DNA of 64,000 bases from a bacterium (GTDB taxonomy: Bacteria > Bacillota > Clostridia > Christensenellales > Aristaeellaceae), in the NCBI GenBank assembly GCA_029009515.1, contig JAQXJZ010000001.1:32122-96121 (forward strand). Reading direction: 5' to 3'. The position numbers and the translations under genes are program-made. Every line of letters starts with the position of its first letter. Position 1 is the stretch's first letter. Under the pieces are notes generated by a model. That model made no database searches. It saw only the letters and a list, made by a program, of their open reading frames with translations, and had not been told where the DNA came from. Positions 19,381 to 29,551 of the stretch are shown piece after piece.

Positions 19381-19543
19381 TACATAACAGATAAATATTC
19401 GCGCGTTTCTGGCATATTAAATAAAAAATTCACAAATTCTATCAAAAAGCGTGCAATTCCAAACAAAGTATGATATAATATTCACGATGTGTACGTGTGT
19501 ACATTTCGGTTCGCAACATTAATGGAGGAGGTCTCAGGCTGCC

Positions 19544-20017
19544 ATGTCCAATCATAACGAAAAATATGAAAAGCTGGCGGAAGTCATTCAGGCTCACAAG
19601 GAGCAAAAGGGCGCGCTGATGCCTGTGCTTCAGGAAGCACAGAACATCTTCGGCTGCGTTTCCGAAGACGTTCAGAAGGTGATTGCGGAGGGCCTTGGTG
19701 TGACTCTCAGCGAAGTCTACGGCGTCGCTACTTTCTACTCTCAGTTCTCTCTGCAGCCCAAGGGCAAGTACGTTGCCGGCGTTTGCCTCGGTACCGCCTG
19801 CTACGTCAAGAACTCTCAGAAGGTGCTGGATAAGCTGTGCTCCGAGCTGGGCATTCAGCCTGGTCAGACTACTGCTGATGGTCTGTTCTCCGTTCAGGCT
19901 ACCCGCTGCCTGGGCGCCTGCGGTCTGGCTCCGGTCATGATGATCAACGACGATGTTTTCGGTCGTCTGACTGAAAATGAAGTTCCCGGCATCATTGCCA
20001 AGTACAAGGCTTCGTAA
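19544..20017 (+). CDS. NADH dehydrogenase 24 kDa-type subunit (NuoE-like) of electron-bifurcating hydrogenase (HydC-type)
   Basis: GVATFYSQFSLQPKGKYVAGVCLGTACYVKNSQ...ATRCLGACGLAPVMMINDDVFG; AGGAGG upstream. Confidence 0.94.
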   Translation: MSNHNEKYEKLAEVIQAHKEQKGALMPVLQEAQNIFGCVSEDVQKVIAEGLGVTLSEVYGVATFYSQFSLQPKGKYVAGVCLGTACYVKNSQKVLDKLCSELGIQPGQTTADGLFSVQATRCLGACGLAPVMMINDDVFGRLTENEVPGIIAKYKAS

Positions 20018-20020
20018 ACC

Positions 20021-20569
20021 ATGCGTGATCTGAGCATGCATGTTCTGGATATTGCCCAGAACAGTATCAAGGCTGGCGCTGCGCTGGTTACCGTTTCCTT
20101 CACGATGGATGAAAAAGGCGTGCTGACCTTTTCTGTTCTGGATGACGGCTGCGGTATGGCGCCTGATTTCCTGGCTCGTGTAACCGATCCATTCACCACA
20201 ACGCGTACCACGCGCAAGGTTGGGCTTGGCATTCCCATGCTCAAGCAAAGCGCTGAAATGTGCGGCGGGGCGTTTGGCATCGAAAGCGAAGTGGGGAAAG
20301 GAACCTGCATTCACGCCTCCTTTGATACCAGAAACATCGACTGTATTCCTTTGGGAGACATTTGTGATTCCCTGCTGTCGCTGGTCGTGCTCAATCCCAC
20401 TCAACCCGAATTCCTTTTCCAGGCTGAAGCCCCCGGAATGGAAGCCTGTTTTGATACAAGACAGCTTCGTGAGGTGCTTGGCGGCGTTCCGCTCAATGAG
20501 CCGGATGTCATCGCCTGGATGAAGGACAGTATCGACGAAGAATTCAAACCAATTTTGGAGGTGTCCTGA
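20021..20569 (+). CDS. HATPase_c ATP-binding protein
   Basis: HVLDIAQNSIKAGAALVTVSF, VLDDGCGMAPDFLARVTDPFTTTRTTRKVGLGIPMLKQSAEMCGGAFGIESEVGKGT. Confidence 0.88.
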   Translation: MRDLSMHVLDIAQNSIKAGAALVTVSFTMDEKGVLTFSVLDDGCGMAPDFLARVTDPFTTTRTTRKVGLGIPMLKQSAEMCGGAFGIESEVGKGTCIHASFDTRNIDCIPLGDICDSLLSLVVLNPTQPEFLFQAEAPGMEACFDTRQLREVLGGVPLNEPDVIAWMKDSIDEEFKPILEVS

Positions 20570-20572
20570 TTT

Positions 20573-20947
20573 ATGAAGTCTCTGGCTGAATTGGAAGCGA
20601 TCCGCGCTAAGACCCTTGAAAGGGTTGCCATGCGCAAGGAAGGCGACAATGCCATTCGCGTGGTCGTGGGCATGGCTACCTGCGGCATCGCTGCCGGCGC
20701 TCGTCCTGTTATGCTCAAGTTCCTCGAGGAAGTCCAGAAGCGTAACCTGCAGAACGTGACCGTTTCTCAGACCGGCTGCATCGGCATGTGCCGTCTGGAG
20801 CCCATGCTGGACGTCATCGTTCCCGGCAAGGAAAAGGTTACCTACGTGAAGGTTAATCCCGACATGGTGTCCCGCATTGTTGCCGAGCACATCGTCAACG
20901 GCCGTCCTGTTCAGGAATACACCATCGGCGCCGCTGAAGGCAAATAA
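20573..20947 (+). CDS. Thioredoxin-like [2Fe-2S] ferredoxin
   Basis: VVVGMATCGIAAGARPVM...VTVSQTGCIGMCRLEPMLDVIVPGKEKVTYVKV. Confidence 0.9.
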   Translation: MKSLAELEAIRAKTLERVAMRKEGDNAIRVVVGMATCGIAAGARPVMLKFLEEVQKRNLQNVTVSQTGCIGMCRLEPMLDVIVPGKEKVTYVKVNPDMVSRIVAEHIVNGRPVQEYTIGAAEGK

Positions 20948-20968
20948 GACTGCTAAGGAGGAACGAAC

Positions 20969-22759
20969 ATGGATCTTTTTCGCGCACATGTACTTGTCTG
21001 CGGCGGTACTGGCTGTACTTCGAGCGGCTCTGCTGAGCTGATCGCCCGTTTCGAAGAGCAGATTGCCAAGAACGGCCTGGACAAGGAAGTTAAGGTTATC
21101 CGCACCGGCTGCTTCGGTCTTTGCGAAGCCGGCCCCGTTGTTATTGTGTATCCCGAAGGCACCTTCTACAGCCGCATCCGCGTGGAAGATGTGGACGAGA
21201 TCGTCTCTGAGCATCTGCTCAAGGGCCGTACTGTTCAGCATCTGGTCTACAAGGAGAAGGCCGACGAAGAACAGCATGCCACTCTGGAGAACATCGACTT
21301 CTACCGTCCCCAGATGCGTCTTGCTCTGCGCAACTGCGGCGTGATCGACCCTGAGAACATCGACGAGTACATCGCTTTTGACGGTTACAAGGCTCTGGCC
21401 AAGGTTCTGACCGAGATGTCTCCCGAAGATGTCATTCAGGAAATGATCAAGTCCGGCCTGCGTGGTCGTGGCGGCGGCGGTTTCCCCACCGGCAAGAAGT
21501 GGCAGTTTGCTGCGGCTTCCAAGTCCGAGCAGAAGTACATCATCTGCAACGCTGACGAGGGCGACCCCGGCGCGTTCATGGATCGCTCCATTCTGGAAGG
21601 CGACCCGCACTCTGTGATCGAAGCCATGGCCATCGGCGGCTACGCCATCGGCGCCTCCGAAGGTTATGTGTACGTCCGTGCTGAGTATCCCATCGCTGTT
21701 AAGCGTCTGCAGCACGCTATCAACCAGGCCCGTGAATATGGCCTGCTGGGCAAGAACATCTTTGGCACCGGCTTTGACTTTGATATCTTCATCCGTCTGG
21801 GCGCTGGCGCTTTCGTCTGCGGCGAAGAAACTGCTCTGATGCGCTCCATCGAAGGTATGCGCGGCGAGCCCACTCCCAAGCCTCCGTTCCCCGCTGTCCG
21901 CGGTCTGTTTGACAAGCCCTCCAACATCAACAACGTTGAGACCTATGCCAACATCCCGCTGATCATCAACAAGGGCGCTGACTGGTTCACCAGCATCGGT
22001 ACTCCTGGCAACAGCGGCACCAAGGTGTTCGCTCTGGGCGGCAAGATCAACAACACTGGTCTGGTCGAAGTTCCCATGGGCACTCCTCTGCGCGACGTCA
22101 TCTACAAGATCGGCGGCGGCATCCCCAACGGCAAGGCCTTCAAGGCTGTTCAGACCGGTGGTCCTTCCGGCGGCTGCATCCCCGCTGAGAACCTGGACAT
22201 CGCCATCGACTATGACTCTCTGACCGCGATCGGCTCCATGATGGGTTCCGGCGGTATGATCGTCATGGACGAAGACAACTGCATGGTTGACATCGCTCGC
22301 TTCTTCCTTGACTTTACCGTCGATGAGAGCTGCGGTAAGTGCACTCCCTGCCGCATCGGTACCCGCCGTATGCTGGAGATCCTCGAGCGCATCACCGAGG
22401 GCAAGGGCGAAGAAGGCGACATCGAGAAGCTGGAAGCTCTGGCTGCCAACATCAAGGCAACCGCTCTGTGCGGCCTGGGCCAGACTGCTCCCAACCCCGT
22501 TCTGTCTACGCTGAAGTACTTCCGTCATGAGTACGAGGCGCACATCAAGGAGAAGCGCTGCCCCGCGCATCACTGCCAGAAGCTGCTCAACTACGAGATC
22601 ACTGACAAGTGCCGTGGCTGCACCGCTTGCGCCCGTGTTTGCCCCGTCAATGCCATCACCGGCAGCGTGAAGGAAATGCACCACATCGACACCACCAAGT
22701 GCATCAAGTGCGGCTCCTGCATGGAGAAGTGCCGCTTTGGCGCCATCGTCAAGAACTAA
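20969..22759 (+). CDS. NuoF-like NAD(P)H/FMN subunit (HydB-type) with N-terminal 2Fe-2S and C-terminal 2x[4Fe-4S]
   Basis: GLRGRGGGGFPTGKKW, CNADEGDPGAFMDRS, GAGAFVCGEETALMRSIEG, ESCGKCTPCRIGTRRM, CRGCTACARVCP, CIKCGSCMEKCRFGAI. Confidence 0.96.
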   Translation: MDLFRAHVLVCGGTGCTSSGSAELIARFEEQIAKNGLDKEVKVIRTGCFGLCEAGPVVIVYPEGTFYSRIRVEDVDEIVSEHLLKGRTVQHLVYKEKADEEQHATLENIDFYRPQMRLALRNCGVIDPENIDEYIAFDGYKALAKVLTEMSPEDVIQEMIKSGLRGRGGGGFPTGKKWQFAAASKSEQKYIICNADEGDPGAFMDRSILEGDPHSVIEAMAIGGYAIGASEGYVYVRAEYPIAVKRLQHAINQAREYGLLGKNIFGTGFDFDIFIRLGAGAFVCGEETALMRSIEGMRGEPTPKPPFPAVRGLFDKPSNINNVETYANIPLIINKGADWFTSIGTPGNSGTKVFALGGKINNTGLVEVPMGTPLRDVIYKIGGGIPNGKAFKAVQTGGPSGGCIPAENLDIAIDYDSLTAIGSMMGSGGMIVMDEDNCMVDIARFFLDFTVDESCGKCTPCRIGTRRMLEILERITEGKGEEGDIEKLEALAANIKATALCGLGQTAPNPVLSTLKYFRHEYEAHIKEKRCPAHHCQKLLNYEITDKCRGCTACARVCPVNAITGSVKEMHHIDTTKCIKCGSCMEKCRFGAIVKN

Positions 22760-22780
22760 CACGCTTAGGAGGAACGTAAC

Positions 22781-24526
22781 ATGGCTAATATGATTCCGCT
22801 TACCATTGATGGCGTGAAGGTTGAAGTTCCTGCTGGTACTACGGTTCTTGAGGCTGCCCGTATCGCCAATGTGAACATCCCCACGCTCTGCTATCTGAAG
22901 GATATCAACGCTACCGGCAACTGCCGTATCTGCGTTGTGGACACCGGCGCCCGTGCTCTGCAGGCTGCCTGCGTTCTGCCCGTGACCCCCAACATGGTGG
23001 TCAAGACCAACACTCCTGCCGTGCGCGCCGCCCGTAAGCTCAACCTCGAGCTGATCCTGAGCAACCACGACAAGAAGTGCCTGAGCTGCTCCCGCAGCCA
23101 GAACTGCGAACTGCAGAAGCTGTGCCTGGATCTGGGCGTTGAGAACGGCGATCGTTTCGCTGGTGCTCAGAACAAGTACGAAATCGACCTGTCTTCTCCC
23201 TCCGTCGTGCGCGACAACAACAAGTGCATTCTGTGCCGTCGTTGCGTGGGCGCTTGCGCGAATGTCCAGAAGATTGGCGTTATCGGCGCCATGAACCGCG
23301 GCTTCAAGACCGCTATCGGCAGCCCCTGGGACAAGAACCTGGCTGAAATGGCTTGCATCAACTGCGGCCAGTGCATCGCTGTTTGCCCCGTTGGCGCTCT
23401 GACCGAGAAGACCGAAACCGACAAGGTTTGGGATGCGATCAACGATCCTACCAAGCACGTTGTCGTGCAGCCCGCTCCCGCTGTCCGCGCCGCTCTGGGC
23501 GAGGAATTTGGCCTGCCCATGGGCACCAGCGTGACCGGCAAGATGGCTGCTGCCATGCGTCGTCTGGGCTTTGACAAGGTGTTCGACACCGACTTCGGTG
23601 CTGACCTGACCATCATGGAAGAGGCCTATGAGCTGATCGACCGCATCACCAACGGCGGCGTTCTGCCCATGATCACCAGCTGCTCTCCCGGCTGGATCAA
23701 GTTCTGCGAGCACTACTATCCCGAGTTCATCCAGAATCTGAGCTCCTGCAAGTCTCCTCACGAGATGGCCGGCGCGATGATCAAGACTTACTACGCCGAG
23801 AAGGCCGGTATCGATCCCAAGGACATCGTTGTTGTGTCCGTGATGCCCTGCACCGCCAAGAAGTTCGAAGCCAAGCGTCCTGAGCTGGGCCACAACGGCA
23901 TGGCTGACGTCGATTACGTCATCACCACCCGCGAGCTCGCCAAGATGATCAAGGAAGCCGGTATCGACTTCTGCAAGCTGGCTGATGAAGACTTCGACAA
24001 GCTGATGGGCGAATCCACCGGCGCTGCCGTTATCTTCGGTGTGACCGGCGGCGTTATGGAAGCTGCTCTGCGTACCGCTTACGAAGCGATCACCGGCGAA
24101 GAGCTGAAGGACGTCAACTTCCACGCTGTCCGCGGCATGGAAGGCATCAAGGAAGCCACTGTTAAGGTTGGCGACCTGGATGTGAACGTTGCTGTTTGCT
24201 CCAGCACCGGCAAGGCTGCTGAGCTGCTCGACAGCATCAAGGCTGGCGAGAAGACCTATCACTTCATCGAGGTCATGGGTTGCCCCGGCGGCTGCGTCAA
24301 TGGCGGCGGTCAGCCCATCGTGTCTGCCCAGGTTCGCAACTGGACCGACATCCGCGCCGAGCGCGCCAAGGCTCTCTACTCTGAGGACGAGTCCAAGACC
24401 CTTCGCAAGAGTCACGAGAACCCCGAAATCAAGCAGATTTATGCCGACTTCCTCGGCAAGCCCAACAGCCACAAGGCTCACGAGCTTCTGCACACCACTT
24501 ACGAGCAGAGGGATCTGTACATCTGA
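22781..24526 (+). CDS. hydA: [FeFe]-hydrogenase catalytic subunit, NADH-linked/bifurcating type (HydA)
   Basis: Plant-type 2Fe-2S N-terminus, CILCRRCVGACANVQ, CINCGQCIAVCP, TSCSPGW, MPCTAKKFE, FIEVMGCPGGCVNGGGQP, small-subunit tail. Confidence 0.96.
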   Translation: MANMIPLTIDGVKVEVPAGTTVLEAARIANVNIPTLCYLKDINATGNCRICVVDTGARALQAACVLPVTPNMVVKTNTPAVRAARKLNLELILSNHDKKCLSCSRSQNCELQKLCLDLGVENGDRFAGAQNKYEIDLSSPSVVRDNNKCILCRRCVGACANVQKIGVIGAMNRGFKTAIGSPWDKNLAEMACINCGQCIAVCPVGALTEKTETDKVWDAINDPTKHVVVQPAPAVRAALGEEFGLPMGTSVTGKMAAAMRRLGFDKVFDTDFGADLTIMEEAYELIDRITNGGVLPMITSCSPGWIKFCEHYYPEFIQNLSSCKSPHEMAGAMIKTYYAEKAGIDPKDIVVVSVMPCTAKKFEAKRPELGHNGMADVDYVITTRELAKMIKEAGIDFCKLADEDFDKLMGESTGAAVIFGVTGGVMEAALRTAYEAITGEELKDVNFHAVRGMEGIKEATVKVGDLDVNVAVCSSTGKAAELLDSIKAGEKTYHFIEVMGCPGGCVNGGGQPIVSAQVRNWTDIRAERAKALYSEDESKTLRKSHENPEIKQIYADFLGKPNSHKAHELLHTTYEQRDLYI

Positions 24527-24872: not shown

Positions 24873-25493
24873 ATGAAAAAATTCCTGAAGCGCTTTTTTT
24901 CATTTTTGCTCATGCTCGTTTTCGCGTTTGCTCTTGTGCAATATGGACCGAATCTCTACGTGCGCTTTTTTGGCGAGAAGAATGCACGTTGGATCAGCGA
25001 GCGATTTTCTGAAACCCTGAAAGAGAAGAACGAGCTGGTTGTGTACGAGATTGAAACCACTGGACAGGAAACGGTTACGCAGGATGCCTGGCTGCTTGGC
25101 ACCGTGCAGAAGGTTGAACTGCCTTACTCGTTCCAGATGTCCTTTACGGTCGACCTTTCCAGTGCCAAGGTTGACGTGGCCGAGAACGTCATCAAGGTCC
25201 GTGTTCCTTCGCCTGAAGCAGGCTATCAGAAACTGACGGTTGACGAGAACAACATCCGCAAGAATGACTGGCTCTATCCGCTTACGCCGGAACGCTACGA
25301 GCAGATCAAACGTCATGTAGAAAACAAACTGTATGACGAATACAGTGTGAATCAAGACTATTGCGATCACGCCTGGAATGTGACAGTTCACAACCTGCAG
25401 AAACTATTTCGAGCTGTGACAGATCAAAGTCTGTTTGGCGATGTTTATGAAATTCAGATCATTCAGGATGACAGCCTTCTCATTGAAAAATAA
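24873..25493 (+). CDS. DUF4230-like membrane-anchored protein
   Basis: N-terminal TM; KNELVVYEIETTGQETV...VELPYSFQMSFTVDLSSAKVDVAENVIKVRVPSPE; family assigned from memory. Confidence 0.6.
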   Translation: MKKFLKRFFSFLLMLVFAFALVQYGPNLYVRFFGEKNARWISERFSETLKEKNELVVYEIETTGQETVTQDAWLLGTVQKVELPYSFQMSFTVDLSSAKVDVAENVIKVRVPSPEAGYQKLTVDENNIRKNDWLYPLTPERYEQIKRHVENKLYDEYSVNQDYCDHAWNVTVHNLQKLFRAVTDQSLFGDVYEIQIIQDDSLLIEK

Positions 25494-25510
25494 TTGAATG
25501 CCTGAGTGAA

Positions 25511-25537
25511 GCCGACCTTTTTGGGTCGGCTTTTTTT
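25511..25537 (+). terminator. Terminator GCCGACC-TTTTTG-GGTCGGC-T7
   Basis: Perfect 7 bp GC stem with T7. Confidence 0.9.
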
Positions 25538-25664
25538 GATCAATAAACGTAACAATCTGTTGTATAACCGTCCATTTGTTCCAATGATATTTACATATTG
25601 TGAAAATAGTGTTACAATTATCATTGTTTGATTGTCATCAATGGATTTCACCGGAGGTGTAGAA

Positions 25665-26873
25665 ATGGATAATGTCATTATGACAAGGCTTACGGCGAAT
25701 CTTTCGGAAATAGTGGTTTATGCTGCCATCGTGGTTGTCACATTGACTGGTTTTTGCAAGTGTATTTATCCGCTGCTTCGTAATGCAGCGCTTCTCAATC
25801 GCGCAGTTGTCAAGCTGGAGAAAAGCACTGCCGCAGGCGATCGTCCTCTTTGGCGCGAAGCGCGCTTTCTTGGCAGATCTCTGCGCAATGAGTGGCAGCA
25901 GTTCCTGCTGAATGCCGGGCAGCTTGATCTTCGCGGCATGCCCTGTGATACTGGCGAATACATCAACGAAGAAACCGTCATCGACAAGCCCGGCCATGCG
26001 CAGCTTGCTGAGCTGATTCCCAGTTTACTGACTTCTCTGGGTATCCTGGGTACCTTCATGGGCTTGATGCAGGGCCTCACCAGCGTCGATTTCTCCAATG
26101 CCGAAGGTACCATTCAGAGCATTCCTCAGCTTCTGGGTGGTATGAAGTTTGCATTTGCCACGTCTGTAGCTGGCATTGCCTGTTCGCTGACATTCAACAT
26201 GTTGAATCGTATGGCTGTTGGCCGCGCTGTTCGCGCATTGGATAACTTTGAAGATGCTTTCTACGAGCTTGCCATGCCGCGTCCGCTTCAGCCCGAAGTG
26301 CAGATGATCTGCCAGAAACAGGACGATGAAGCACGGATGATTCGACTGGCAGAAAGCATCAGCAACCATGTAGCTGCATCCCTTGAAATGGCGGTCAGCC
26401 GGGCCATGAATCCGCTGACACAGTCGCTTGATACCTTCATTAAGTGCGCAACTCGTGAACAGGTTGACGGCGTACGCAGGATTGTGGGGCAGTTTGTGCA
26501 GCAGCTGAATGTAACGCTGAATGAACAGATCAGCTCTCTCGGTGAAAACATGCGTGTGGTTTCGGAAGCCCAGAAGGAAACGCAGAAAAACCTGCACAAT
26601 ACCATTGCCGCTGTACAGGCGATGTCCAATGCTGCGCAGGATATCCAGCATTCCACCAGCGAAATCGCTGCCAATATGCAGCAGCTGAGCGATGAGATGC
26701 ACATGCGCAGCGAGGCCGCTGTGAATGCGCAGGATTCTGCTGATCAGCTGGCTGTACGCCTTGAAAACCTGAGCGATTCTCTGCGCCGCATGCAGCTTGC
26801 GGTCGATGTGCTGACTGCTGAACTGAATGGAACACAGCTGCCTGTGCTGGACGACGATAACGTGGAGATGTAA
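25665..26873 (+). CDS. MotA/TolQ/ExbB-type proton-channel protein (ZorA-like) with helical C-terminal tail
   Basis: PSLLTSLGILGTFMGLMQGL...GGMKFAFATSVAGIACSLTFNMLNR; about 170 aa helical tail; GGAGG before ATG. Confidence 0.85.
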   Translation: MDNVIMTRLTANLSEIVVYAAIVVVTLTGFCKCIYPLLRNAALLNRAVVKLEKSTAAGDRPLWREARFLGRSLRNEWQQFLLNAGQLDLRGMPCDTGEYINEETVIDKPGHAQLAELIPSLLTSLGILGTFMGLMQGLTSVDFSNAEGTIQSIPQLLGGMKFAFATSVAGIACSLTFNMLNRMAVGRAVRALDNFEDAFYELAMPRPLQPEVQMICQKQDDEARMIRLAESISNHVAASLEMAVSRAMNPLTQSLDTFIKCATREQVDGVRRIVGQFVQQLNVTLNEQISSLGENMRVVSEAQKETQKNLHNTIAAVQAMSNAAQDIQHSTSEIAANMQQLSDEMHMRSEAAVNAQDSADQLAVRLENLSDSLRRMQLAVDVLTAELNGTQLPVLDDDNVEM

Positions 26874-26888
26874 GAAGGAGGGGAGGCA

Positions 26889-27995
26889 ATGGCTCGCAGA
26901 AAGAGAAACCGTCGTATGAGCGGAAAGGCGGATGGCGGATCTGCATGGATCAGCTATTCGGATATGATGGCAGCACTGCTGTTGCTGTTTGTTCTCATAC
27001 TTTGTTACAGCCTTTACCAATACTTTATCATGCTCGAAACCAAAACAGCCGAGCTGGACGAGCAGGCCCTCCTTTTGGGCAAGCAGCAGTTAACGCTTGA
27101 CGAGCAAAAGAAGACGCTTGAAAAGCAGCAAACCACGCTTAATCTGCAGCAGACTACGCTGGAAAAACAGCAGAAAGAGCTGGAAACGCAACAGACGGCT
27201 CTGAAAACGCAGGAAACAGAGTTGTCTGCCGCGCTTACGCAGCTTGATGAGCAAAGGGGATTGCTGACCAAGCAGGAGCTGACCCTTGAAGAGCAGGAAA
27301 AGATTATCCTGGCTGCTCAAAAAGAGCTTACCACCAAAGAAACAGAACTAAAGAAAGCCAATACCGAACTTGAGACGCAGCAGAAGGCTTTGCTGGATGC
27401 AACCATCCTGCTTGGCGAACAGCAAAAAGCCATGGAAACTCAGCAGCGCAAGCTGGATGATCTGGTTGGTGTTCGCACGAAGATTGTTCGTGAGCTAACG
27501 ACCGCGCTGAATAAGGCCGCACTCAAGGCAAGTGTAGACGCCAACACCGGTGATATTGTGCTGGAAAGCGCTGTGTTCTTTGATTATGGCAAAAACACCA
27601 TCAAAGAAGCCGGTCAGGCATTCCTGGATCAGTTCATTCCCATTTACCTTGGGGTTCTGCTTCAGCCCGAATACGATGATTATCTTGGTGAAATCATTAT
27701 CGAGGGCCATACCGATACCAACGGCGAATATCTGTTCAACCTCGAACTCTCTCAGGAGCGCGCGCTGAGCGTTGCAGCGTATTGCCTGGAAATGCCTTCA
27801 CTTACGAATAACCAGTTGGAAAAGCTGCGCGAAATTCTCACTGCGAAGGGCAGAAGCGAATCCGATCCCATCTACAATGCGGATGGAACTATCAACATGG
27901 AAGCGTGCAGACGCGTTGAGTTCAAATTCCGCATGAAGGATTCCGAGATGATTGACGAAATTCGCGATATTCTGTCATCTGACGACATGCAGTAA
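26889..27995 (+). CDS. OmpA/MotB-type protein with long heptad stalk (ZorB-like)
   Basis: WISYSDMMAALLLLFVLIL (TM Asp), heptad region, then OmpA-like VFFDYGKNTIKEAGQAFL...IIIEGHTDTNGEYLFNLELSQERALSVAAYC. Confidence 0.88.
   Translation: MARRKRNRRMSGKADGGSAWISYSDMMAALLLLFVLILCYSLYQYFIMLETKTAELDEQALLLGKQQLTLDEQKKTLEKQQTTLNLQQTTLEKQQKELETQQTALKTQETELSAALTQLDEQRGLLTKQELTLEEQEKIILAAQKELTTKETELKKANTELETQQKALLDATILLGEQQKAMETQQRKLDDLVGVRTKIVRELTTALNKAALKASVDANTGDIVLESAVFFDYGKNTIKEAGQAFLDQFIPIYLGVLLQPEYDDYLGEIIIEGHTDTNGEYLFNLELSQERALSVAAYCLEMPSLTNNQLEKLREILTAKGRSESDPIYNADGTINMEACRRVEFKFRMKDSEMIDEIRDILSSDDMQ
27033..27473 (+). repeat. 21 consecutive coding heptads LxxQxxx (coiled-coil stalk)
   Basis: LETKTAE LDEQALL LGKQQLT LDEQKKT LEKQQTT LNLQQTT LEKQQKE LETQQTA ... 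METQQRK LDDLVGV. Confidence 0.9.
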
Positions 27996-28005
27996 AGGAG
28001 CTTGC

Positions 28006-28500
28006 ATGAAAGGACTCAAAATTGCAGCCATTGCATCTTTTTCGCTGCTTCTGGTTATGCTGGTACTGGTAGGGTACCTGTTTATGACGGCCGAAGTTTC
28101 GGTGGTACAGGTAACGGCGCATGGCATACCGGCCTCTTCGGATCCTGCTGCGTTTGAACAGCTGAAGACGTCAGTTGAGGAAGGAACATTTCAGGGGACA
28201 TTATTTCAGAAACCTCTTGAATGGAAGGATGCAAGCGAATACGTCTATCTGACCTATACCATTAGACTGCAGAACAATTGCCTTGTTCCTATCGATATGG
28301 TGGAAGCTCAGGTTGTTCCGCTTTCTACAGATATCCTGCAGATTGGTGACTATGAAGTTCGTTCGCTGGATCTCAAAAGCCAAGGCGATCTGAACGTGCG
28401 TATTCTGGCTCCTAAGGACACTCATTCTGTACGCGAGCTGATTGTCACGTATTATCTCTGGGGCGTCTCAGGAAGCGTTAAAACGCTGTTTGGACAGTAA
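28006..28500 (+). CDS. Membrane-anchored extracytoplasmic protein, unknown function
   Basis: N-terminal TM then about 130 aa beta-rich sequence; AAAGGAG SD; same candidate transcription unit as motor genes. Confidence 0.7.
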   Translation: MKGLKIAAIASFSLLLVMLVLVGYLFMTAEVSVVQVTAHGIPASSDPAAFEQLKTSVEEGTFQGTLFQKPLEWKDASEYVYLTYTIRLQNNCLVPIDMVEAQVVPLSTDILQIGDYEVRSLDLKSQGDLNVRILAPKDTHSVRELIVTYYLWGVSGSVKTLFGQ

Positions 28501-28540
28501 AAACAAACTGATAAGCCGCTTTTTGATTAGGAGGTTTGTT

Positions 28541-29518
28541 ATGTGTACTGCCGTTTCTTATCAGCCTAAAGATCATTACTTTGGTCGTAATCTCGATCTT
28601 GAATACTCATATAACGAAACCATTACCATCACACCGCGGTGTTTTCCGCTTCATTTCCGGCATGCAAATACGCTTGAACATCACCTTGCAATGATTGGCA
28701 TGGCCTATGTAGCGGATGGGTATCCACTCTACTACGAGGCAACAAATGAGGCAGGACTCAGCATGGCAGGTCTCAATTTCCCGGGAAACGCGGTGTATTG
28801 CAGTAACCCTGAAAGCCATGAATCAGTTGCCCCTTTTGAATTGATCCCCTGGATTCTGGCACAGTACAGTAATGCTGCTGAAGCCGTGGAAGCCATCAAA
28901 CAGCTCAGTCTTGTTCATGAGCATTTCAGAGATGATCTTCCCGTCACACCACTTCATTGGCTTCTTTCAGACAAGGACGCATCGTTTGTCATCGAAAGTA
29001 TGACCGACGGAATACTCATTCTCGAGAATCCTGTTGGTGTTCTCACGAATAATCCGCCTTTTGAGTACCATATGCTGCGTCTCAATGACTTCCTGAATGT
29101 TACAAACCGGCCGCCTGAGAACCGCTTTGCCGATGAAATCACGCTGGTTCCATACAGCCTTGGCATGGGCAGTATAGGCCTGCCTGGCGATATGTCATCC
29201 TCCTCACGCTTCGTTCGTGCAGCTTTCGTTAAAGCAAACTCCATCCCTTCGGACGATGACGCAGAAAATCTCTCGCAATTCTTTCATATTCTGGATGCAG
29301 TCTTTCAGCCCAAAGGCTGTACAATGCTGCAGTCTGGGCTTTACGAATACACGCTCTATTCCAGCTGCTGCAATACAACACGAGGCGTGTACTACTACAA
29401 AACCTACGAAAACAACCAGATTTCAGGTGTAAATATGCATGCGGAAAATCTGGACGCTTCTTCTCTGATCATATATCCTATGCTGTCTGCTCAGCAAATC
29501 CACATGCAAAATCAATAA
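28541..29518 (+). CDS. Choloylglycine hydrolase family (bile salt hydrolase / penicillin V acylase)
   Basis: Starts MCTAVSYQPKDHYFGRNLDLEYSYNE (Cys2 nucleophile), EAGLSMAGLNFPGNAVY, GVLTNNPPFEYH, SSSRFVRAAF; AGGAGG SD; the track start at 28442 is too early. Confidence 0.93.
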   Translation: MCTAVSYQPKDHYFGRNLDLEYSYNETITITPRCFPLHFRHANTLEHHLAMIGMAYVADGYPLYYEATNEAGLSMAGLNFPGNAVYCSNPESHESVAPFELIPWILAQYSNAAEAVEAIKQLSLVHEHFRDDLPVTPLHWLLSDKDASFVIESMTDGILILENPVGVLTNNPPFEYHMLRLNDFLNVTNRPPENRFADEITLVPYSLGMGSIGLPGDMSSSSRFVRAAFVKANSIPSDDDAENLSQFFHILDAVFQPKGCTMLQSGLYEYTLYSSCCNTTRGVYYYKTYENNQISGVNMHAENLDASSLIIYPMLSAQQIHMQNQ

Positions 29519-29519
29519 G

Positions 29520-29551
29520 AAAAGGAGCGGGACAATCGTCTCGCTCCTTTT
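29520..29551. terminator. Bidirectional terminator AAAAGGAGCGGGAC-AATC-GTCTCGCTCCTTTT
   Basis: 14 bp stem (one G-U) between convergent bsh-like gene and nagA. Confidence 0.9.

What the first reader, a model, noticed from the sequence alone, without database searches (positions are those of the whole stretch)
25665..29518. Orphan Zorya-like proton-motor operon ending in a bile-salt-hydrolase-like gene
Seen: a MotA/TolQ/ExbB-like gene (helical C-tail), an OmpA/MotB-like gene with a TM Asp and long stalk, a TM-anchored extracytoplasmic protein of unknown family, and a choloylglycine-hydrolase gene. Gaps are 15, 10 and 40 nt, with a strong terminator before (25511) and after (29520) and none obvious between. 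Established: ZorA (MotA/ExbB) and ZorB (OmpA/MotB) form the Zorya anti-phage motor, normally with ZorC/D or ZorE effectors. No nuclease or helicase effector is encoded here. Inference: a ZorAB-class stator pair has been adopted for another envelope function, or is a minimal defence or sensing module with the third gene as partner. The Ntn hydrolase may be a passenger or may act in a bile/membrane-stress response.
Basis: partly seen in the sequence, partly recalled or inferred. Interest (0 to 1): 0.72.

Follow-up and report, generated by a model that had tools for sequence, protein, structure and literature searches.

The report
Housekeeping ZorAB-like envelope motor operon
A family of bacteria that has no flagella keeps, in nearly every member, an ion-driven membrane motor related to the engine of the Zorya anti-phage system but without its DNA-cutting parts; here it has a long rod whose length changes in whole seven-residue steps and new surface partner proteins, while the bile-salt gene beside it is only a local passenger.

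Summary
Observation confirmed. The four genes lie as described, after a promoter-like site and a terminator. A and B are a ZorAB-class stator pair: sequence, Foldseek and a B tree put them with ZorA/ZorB, away from flagellar MotAB. No ZorC/D/E lies nearby.

The unit is A-B-C, not A-B-C-D. A-B-C is contiguous in 78 of 80 other loci. The bile-salt hydrolase follows it in none and is a passenger.

In the window's taxonomic family B is in 187/200 genomes and C in 173/200; FlhA is in 0/120. C was not found in other families of the order, plasmids or phages. This pattern is housekeeping, not defence.

New features: (1) B has a coiled-coil stalk absent from Zorya ZorB; the distance from its membrane Asp motif to its peptidoglycan motif varies almost always in steps of 7 residues (28 of 32 inferred changes). 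(2) C is a TM-anchored beta-sandwich of no known family. (3) A second TM-anchored protein, C', takes C's place behind A-B in about ten genera, though both genes are near-universal in the family. (4) One clade adds a secreted D-Ala-D-Ala dipeptidase.

Best reading: an ion-driven, wall-anchored envelope motor of the ZorAB class with a non-defence housekeeping role. The cellular task is inferred.

The parts
25508..25533 (+). intrinsic-terminator-like hairpin of the upstream DUF4230 gene, separating it from the operon
   Evidence: 11 pairs, T-rich tail
25590..25618 (+). sigma-70-like promoter (TTTACA-17-TACAAT, TG before the second hexamer)
   Evidence: consensus match only
25665..26873 (+). gene A: ZorA-class channel subunit; three long membrane helices and an approx. 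180-residue helical cytoplasmic tail
   Evidence: Pfam MotA_ExbB; NCBIfam ZorA_2 1.6e-20, below its cut-off; phmmer 8vvn ZorA 6e-18; Foldseek top six all ZorA, E 3e-8 to 1.5e-5; AlphaFold2 pLDDT 78.5
26889..27995 (+). gene B: ZorB-class stator subunit (N-terminal TM with Asp25, coiled-coil stalk, C-terminal OmpA-like peptidoglycan-binding domain)
   Evidence: PADLOC ZorB1 PDLC00609 5.7e-69; tree; alignment A2
26961..26963 (+). codon of Asp25, the presumed ion-carrying aspartate of the B transmembrane helix, invariant in 30 homologues
27033..27458 (+). coding region of the heptad coiled-coil stalk of B (residues about 49-190), varying in whole heptads among homologues
   Evidence: part of it is a 21-bp tandem repeat at 27114-27172
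27576..27890 (+). OmpA-like peptidoglycan-binding domain of B (residues 230-334; EGHTD and NLELSQERALSV motifs)
   Evidence: Pfam PF00691 8e-11
28006..28500 (+). gene C: N-terminal TM helix plus exported beta-sandwich; no known family; conserved partner of A-B
   Evidence: contiguous in 78/80 loci; AlphaFold2 pLDDT 94.6; no PDB match at E<=0.001
28541..29518 (+). gene D: bile salt hydrolase, a passenger here and not part of the motor system
   Evidence: NCBIfam NF038245 436 bits; adjacent to A-B-C in 0/80 loci
29521..29550 (+). hairpin (9-bp stem, 12-nt loop, short T tail), probable terminator between D and the convergent nagA-like gene
   Evidence: read from sequence; not called by the scanner because of loop size

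Best explanation
A and B form an ion-driven motor of the ZorAB class (inferred 5 A : 2 B). B's dimer is inferred to be held by its OmpA domains to peptidoglycan at the end of a long parallel coiled coil; ion flow past Asp25 would turn the A ring and its cytoplasmic helical rod. C, and the unlinked C', are single-TM exported proteins that probably sit at the membrane base of the stalk and gate, brace or read the motor. In this flagella-less family of Clostridia the machine is a vertically kept housekeeping envelope system (force or wall-status transduction for the cell wall), not phage defence. The bile salt hydrolase is a horizontally acquired passenger. Shown: class, conservation, partner genes, stalk. 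Inferred: 5:2 assembly, rotation, placement of C and C'. Least certain: the cellular task.
For: Class: A and B match ZorA/ZorB best by profile, by fold and by tree (B clade joined with Zorya I/II ZorB, 100/99 away from MotB). Zorya neighbours in the tree carry verified ZorC/D or ZorE; this operon carries none, and the genome's best ZorD-like hit is a generic SNF2 helicase core elsewhere. Housekeeping: B in 187/200 and C in 173/200 family genomes (99/103 and 97/103 of the better ones); C in no genome of the order outside the family, not in plasmids or phages. No flagellum: FlhA 0/120; one MotA_ExbB gene in the own genome. Partner: A-B-C contiguous in 78/80 loci with changing flanks. C' in 140/150 genomes, directly behind A-B in about ten genera, while C stands beside polA in several of them. 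Wall link: OmpA domain with PG-binding motifs, stalk with 28/32 length changes in multiples of 7, secreted D-Ala-D-Ala dipeptidase behind C in 17/80 loci.
Against: No complex structure was predicted, so stoichiometry and the place of C and C' are unproven. All four genes are near-core in the family, so co-occurrence alone says little; the link rests on gene order. One genus (g282) has B in all six sampled genomes but no detectable C. The dipeptidase is in one clade only. No phenotype is known for any member.
Confidence: 0.62

Rival explanations
1. A minimal or divergent Zorya-type defence system in which C (or an unlinked effector) replaces ZorC/D/E.
For: A and B are closest to ZorA/ZorB; in Zorya the motor is the sensor and works with separable effectors (PMC11890865).
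Against: Near-universal in one family, C in no other family of the order; flanks in the window are metabolic genes, not defence genes; C and C' are exported and not nuclease-like; C is absent from plasmids and phages. Defence systems are usually patchy and mobile (established knowledge).
Confidence: 0.15
2. A mechanosensor or ion-flux signalling device: AB and C/C' report wall stretch or damage to the cytoplasm through the A tail instead of doing mechanical work.
For: ZorB is proposed to sense peptidoglycan damage (PMC11890865); the stalk holds a constant heptad phase; A's tail is retained but its length is not quantised.
Against: No cytoplasmic partner gene is conserved beside the operon; a housekeeping force role fits equally well. 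This overlaps the best explanation and differs in what the motor is for.
Confidence: 0.3
3. A leftover or re-used flagellar stator (MotAB) in a lineage that lost its flagellum.
For: The family lacks FlhA and the own genome keeps one MotA-superfamily gene.
Against: Tree separates B from 16 Bacillota MotB with 100/99 support; A matches ZorA structures at 3e-8 against MotA at 3e-2; WISYSD and LTSLGILGTF signatures are Zor-like.
Confidence: 0.04
4. A bile-salt response operon: motor, C and bile-salt hydrolase work together.
For: 40-nt gap, no terminator or promoter found between C and D in the window.
Against: 0/80 homologous loci carry D; congeners' copies are 43-53% identical and elsewhere in the genome where this could be seen.
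Confidence: 0.03

Closest known systems
Zorya type I (ZorABCD) of Bacillota
   Same: closest relatives of A and B in sequence; gene order A-B then further genes; ZorA fold and helical cytoplasmic tail; TM Asp; OmpA/PG domain
   Different: no ZorC or ZorD; exported C instead; B has a long heptad stalk (mostly 200-264 residues between motifs against 113-131 in Zorya ZorB); family-core instead of patchy
Zorya type II (ZorABE)
   Same: ZorAB-class motor
   Different: no ZorE nickase; more distant in the B tree
Flagellar MotAB / MotPS
   Same: stator superfamily, PG anchor on B
   Different: separate clade; no flagellum in the family
ExbBD, TolQR, GldLM, AglRQS (non-flagellar ion-driven motors)
   Same: works like them in principle: an ion-driven motor used for an envelope task
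   Different: A is structurally nearer ZorA than TolQ/ExbB; no TonB/TolA/Gld partner seen; partners C and C' are new
Bile salt hydrolase (NF038245)
   Same: gene D is a full-length member
   Different: unrelated to the motor; passenger

Membership tests
Zorya defence system | ZorA/ZorB motor pair | tested here: met
   PADLOC, Foldseek and tree, though below the NCBIfam ZorA/ZorB cut-offs
Zorya defence system | ZorC+ZorD or ZorE effector encoded with ZorAB | tested here: not met
   none in the operon; the following genes are C and an Ntn hydrolase; own-genome ZorD hit is an unlinked generic SNF2 helicase
Zorya defence system | patchy, mobile distribution in defence islands | tested here: not met
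   family-core, absent elsewhere in the order, metabolic flanks
Zorya defence system | protects against phage | not testable with these tools
   needs plaque assays
5:2 ion-driven motors (MotAB/ExbBD/ZorAB superfamily) | A subunit with MotA/ExbB core; B with one TM carrying an essential Asp | tested here: met
   (presence and invariance of the Asp; essentiality not tested)
5:2 ion-driven motors (MotAB/ExbBD/ZorAB superfamily) | 5:2 stoichiometry and ion-driven rotation | not testable with these tools
   no complex prediction available
Flagellar stator MotAB | groups with MotB; works with a flagellar rotor | tested here: not met
   tree; FlhA 0/120
Bile salt hydrolase (gene D only) | CBAH fold and BSH model above cut-off, N-terminal Cys after Met | tested here: met
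   436 bits over 350; Cys2 aligned to the first residue of solved BSHs

The most novel reading that the evidence does not exclude
A previously undescribed kind of ion-driven envelope motor: a ZorAB-class stator fixed as a family-wide housekeeping machine in flagella-less Clostridia, with a heptad-quantised wall-anchoring rod and two TM-anchored partners (C, C') that alternate in its operon, i.e. a defence-type motor turned to (or kept in) cell-wall service.
Probability: 0.6. Interest if true: 0.78.

Novelty: new variant of a known kind. Interest (0 to 1): 0.62.

Why it matters
Known ion-driven motors of this superfamily serve flagella, gliding, Ton/Tol transport, type 9 secretion and Zorya defence. 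A ZorAB-class motor kept by nearly every member of a non-flagellated family, without effectors, suggests another job for these machines and a link between phage defence and envelope upkeep. It also gives two testable protein families of unknown function (C, C') and a natural series of stalk lengths for studying how such motors reach the wall. It is a caution for defence annotation too: a ZorB model hits these genes strongly although no defence effector is present.

Tried and rejected
Bile-linked function (rejected: D absent from 80 loci). Flagellar stator (rejected). Zorya effector elsewhere in the genome (only a generic SNF2 helicase). Known fold for C (Foldseek only generic Ig-like ears and filament proteins, none at E<=0.001). 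Heptad quantisation of A's tail as for B's stalk (not seen). The DUF4230 gene upstream as an operon member (rejected: terminator between, and found near the operon in only 11 loci, window included). Two weak C hits elsewhere in the class (20-21 bits) were left as probable chance or very distant matches. The B-like hit in L157 is a lipoprotein with an OmpA domain, not a stator. Literature searches found no report of this system. Naming the family was not possible from the tools; Aristaeellaceae/Christensenellales is my guess from record titles and memory.
Full report
WHAT IS THERE. The four genes are present at the stated coordinates with gaps of 15, 10 and 40 nt. A promoter-like site (25590-25618) lies upstream, after the terminator of a DUF4230 gene; no strong terminator separates the four genes. 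Pfam gives MotA_ExbB for A, MotB_plug and OmpA for B, CBAH for D and nothing for C. D is a bile salt hydrolase above NCBIfam's cut-off, close to solved BSH structures.

WHICH MOTOR CLASS. A and B are ZorAB-class. PADLOC gives ZorA (1.5e-19) and ZorB1 PDLC00609 (5.7e-69); NCBIfam's ZorA and ZorB models also lead but stay below their cut-offs. Solved ZorA/ZorB chains are the best PDB sequence matches. The AlphaFold2 model of A (pLDDT 78.5, tail less certain) finds ZorA six times first (E 3e-8 to 1.5e-5), then TolQ/ExbB at about 1e-2 and MotA at 3e-2. A tree of 62 B proteins puts the 32 family members together (95/96) in one branch with Zorya I and II ZorB (100/99), away from 16 flagellar MotB. 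Part of the Zorya set branches elsewhere (L150, L151) and some branches are long, so 'sister to Zorya' is safer than 'derived from Zorya'. The Zorya loci used carry ZorC and/or ZorD (among them L141-L145, L150, L151) or ZorE (L147, L148, L149) by PADLOC, for the genes scanned.

WHAT BELONGS TO THE UNIT. Eighty homologous loci from other genomes were fetched. A-B-C is contiguous in 78; in one the contig ends after B and in one C lies 4.1 kb away. These 80 are the best matches to the window's B, so they favour near relatives. Flanking genes differ among them. D is next to the unit in none. Within the window's genus 5 of 17 genomes (window included) have a BSH above cut-off; the copies outside the window are 43-53% identical to D, and where both contigs are known they are not those of the motor. 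D is therefore a passenger.

HOW WIDE. In 200 genomes of the window's family B is found in 187 and C in 173 (99/103 and 97/103 of the better genomes). In 151 genomes of the order C occurs only in this family; strong full-length B matches are likewise confined to it, with a few more distant relatives. FlhA is absent from 120 of 120 family genomes, and the own genome has one MotA_ExbB gene (the assembly is 86% complete). C is not found in plasmids or phages. The family cannot be named from these tools; related records are labelled Candidatus Limiplasma, Clostridia and Christensenellaceae. If it is Aristaeellaceae (my guess), its cultured members are described as non-motile and Gram-stain-negative (PMC12694931).

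THE STALK. B's residues 49-190 are near-perfect heptads with Leu in one position (L autocorrelation 0.49 at 7 and 0.44 at 14). Across homologues the distance from the Asp motif (SYSDMM) to the peptidoglycan motif (EGHTD) is 201, 208, 215, 222, 229, 236, 243, 250, 264 or 320 in 75 of 80 rows; the five exceptions are 190, 200 (three times) and 207. On a tree built without the stalk, 28 of 32 inferred length changes are multiples of 7 (the binomial value of 4e-20 against 1 in 7 ignores mutational bias and tree error). Part of the effect may come from slippage of 21-bp repeats. Zorya ZorB in Bacillota has 113-131 residues over the same span. At 0.15 nm per residue (established value for a helix) the window's stalk is about 21 nm. 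A's tail length shows no such quantisation. A continuous coiled coil of fixed phase from membrane to wall is the simplest reading.

C AND C'. C is one TM helix plus a beta-sandwich, modelled with high confidence (pLDDT 94.6), with no PDB match at E<=0.001. Invariant residues are N90, D109, L134, R143, Y150, W152, G153. In about ten genera the best C lies on another contig from A-B (reading together), in several beside polA. There A-B is in most cases followed by another protein, C' (about 187 aa, N-terminal TM, faint SnoaL/NTF2 similarity below cut-off), 60-65% identical among the three aligned. C' is itself near-universal: 140/150 genomes, 82/85 of the better ones, including the own genome on another contig. 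So A, B, C and C' are all family-core genes, and either C or C' may share the motor's operon. I take this as evidence that both act with A-B; it is guilt by association, not proof. Elsewhere C' sits beside dusB or smc-ftsY genes, which gives no clue. In 17 of 80 loci a secreted D-Ala-D-Ala dipeptidase (PF01427) directly follows C, pointing to the cell wall.

MECHANISM. By analogy with solved ZorAB and MotAB (PMC11890865), B's dimer should be wall-held through the OmpA domains, with ion flow past Asp25 turning A and its rod. C and C', with short ectodomains, would stay near the membrane. Shown here: class, conservation, partner genes, stalk periodicity. Inferred: 5:2 assembly, rotation, positions. 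Least certain: the task, for which I favour wall-related force or status transduction.

KNOWN OR NEW. It is a member of the ion-driven motor superfamily and of the ZorAB class, but not a Zorya system: the effector and distribution tests fail. Literature searches found no description, though most subscription papers are not covered. A 2025 survey of MotAB and non-flagellar relatives mentions members of unknown function in general terms (PMC12505986). I call it a new variant of a known kind.

Noticed in passing
G000:C29:4510-5043 (L195): The window's own genome carries C' (TM plus NTF2-like) on another contig, downstream of an AzlC gene and an L,D-transpeptidase-like gene with many PG-binding repeats.
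   Followed up: partly
window 19442-24493 (-): A 1683-aa open frame lies antisense to hydrogenase-type genes (NuoF-like 20969-22759, [FeFe]-hydrogenase-like 22781-24526); probably a composition artefact.
   Followed up: no
window 24873-25493: A DUF4230 gene with its own terminator precedes the operon; homologues lie near the operon in only 11 loci (window included).
   Followed up: partly
L157 (G053:C118): A lipoprotein with an OmpA-like domain beside an FHA-ABC ATPase and a kinase-like gene; looks like a separate envelope or signalling cluster.
   Followed up: no
L207, L208 (IMG/VR contigs): ZorB-like proteins (39% identity over residues 111-362) on contigs classed as viral.
   Followed up: no
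L147 3447-4874: A NERD-HRDC protein lies directly before a type II Zorya operon (ZorA, ZorB, ZorE).
   Followed up: no
L142 1473-3995: A PglZ gene directly precedes a type I Zorya operon, suggesting a combined defence island.
   Followed up: no
genus g282 (six genomes): B is present in all six sampled genomes but C was not detected; may show loss or divergence of C.
   Followed up: no
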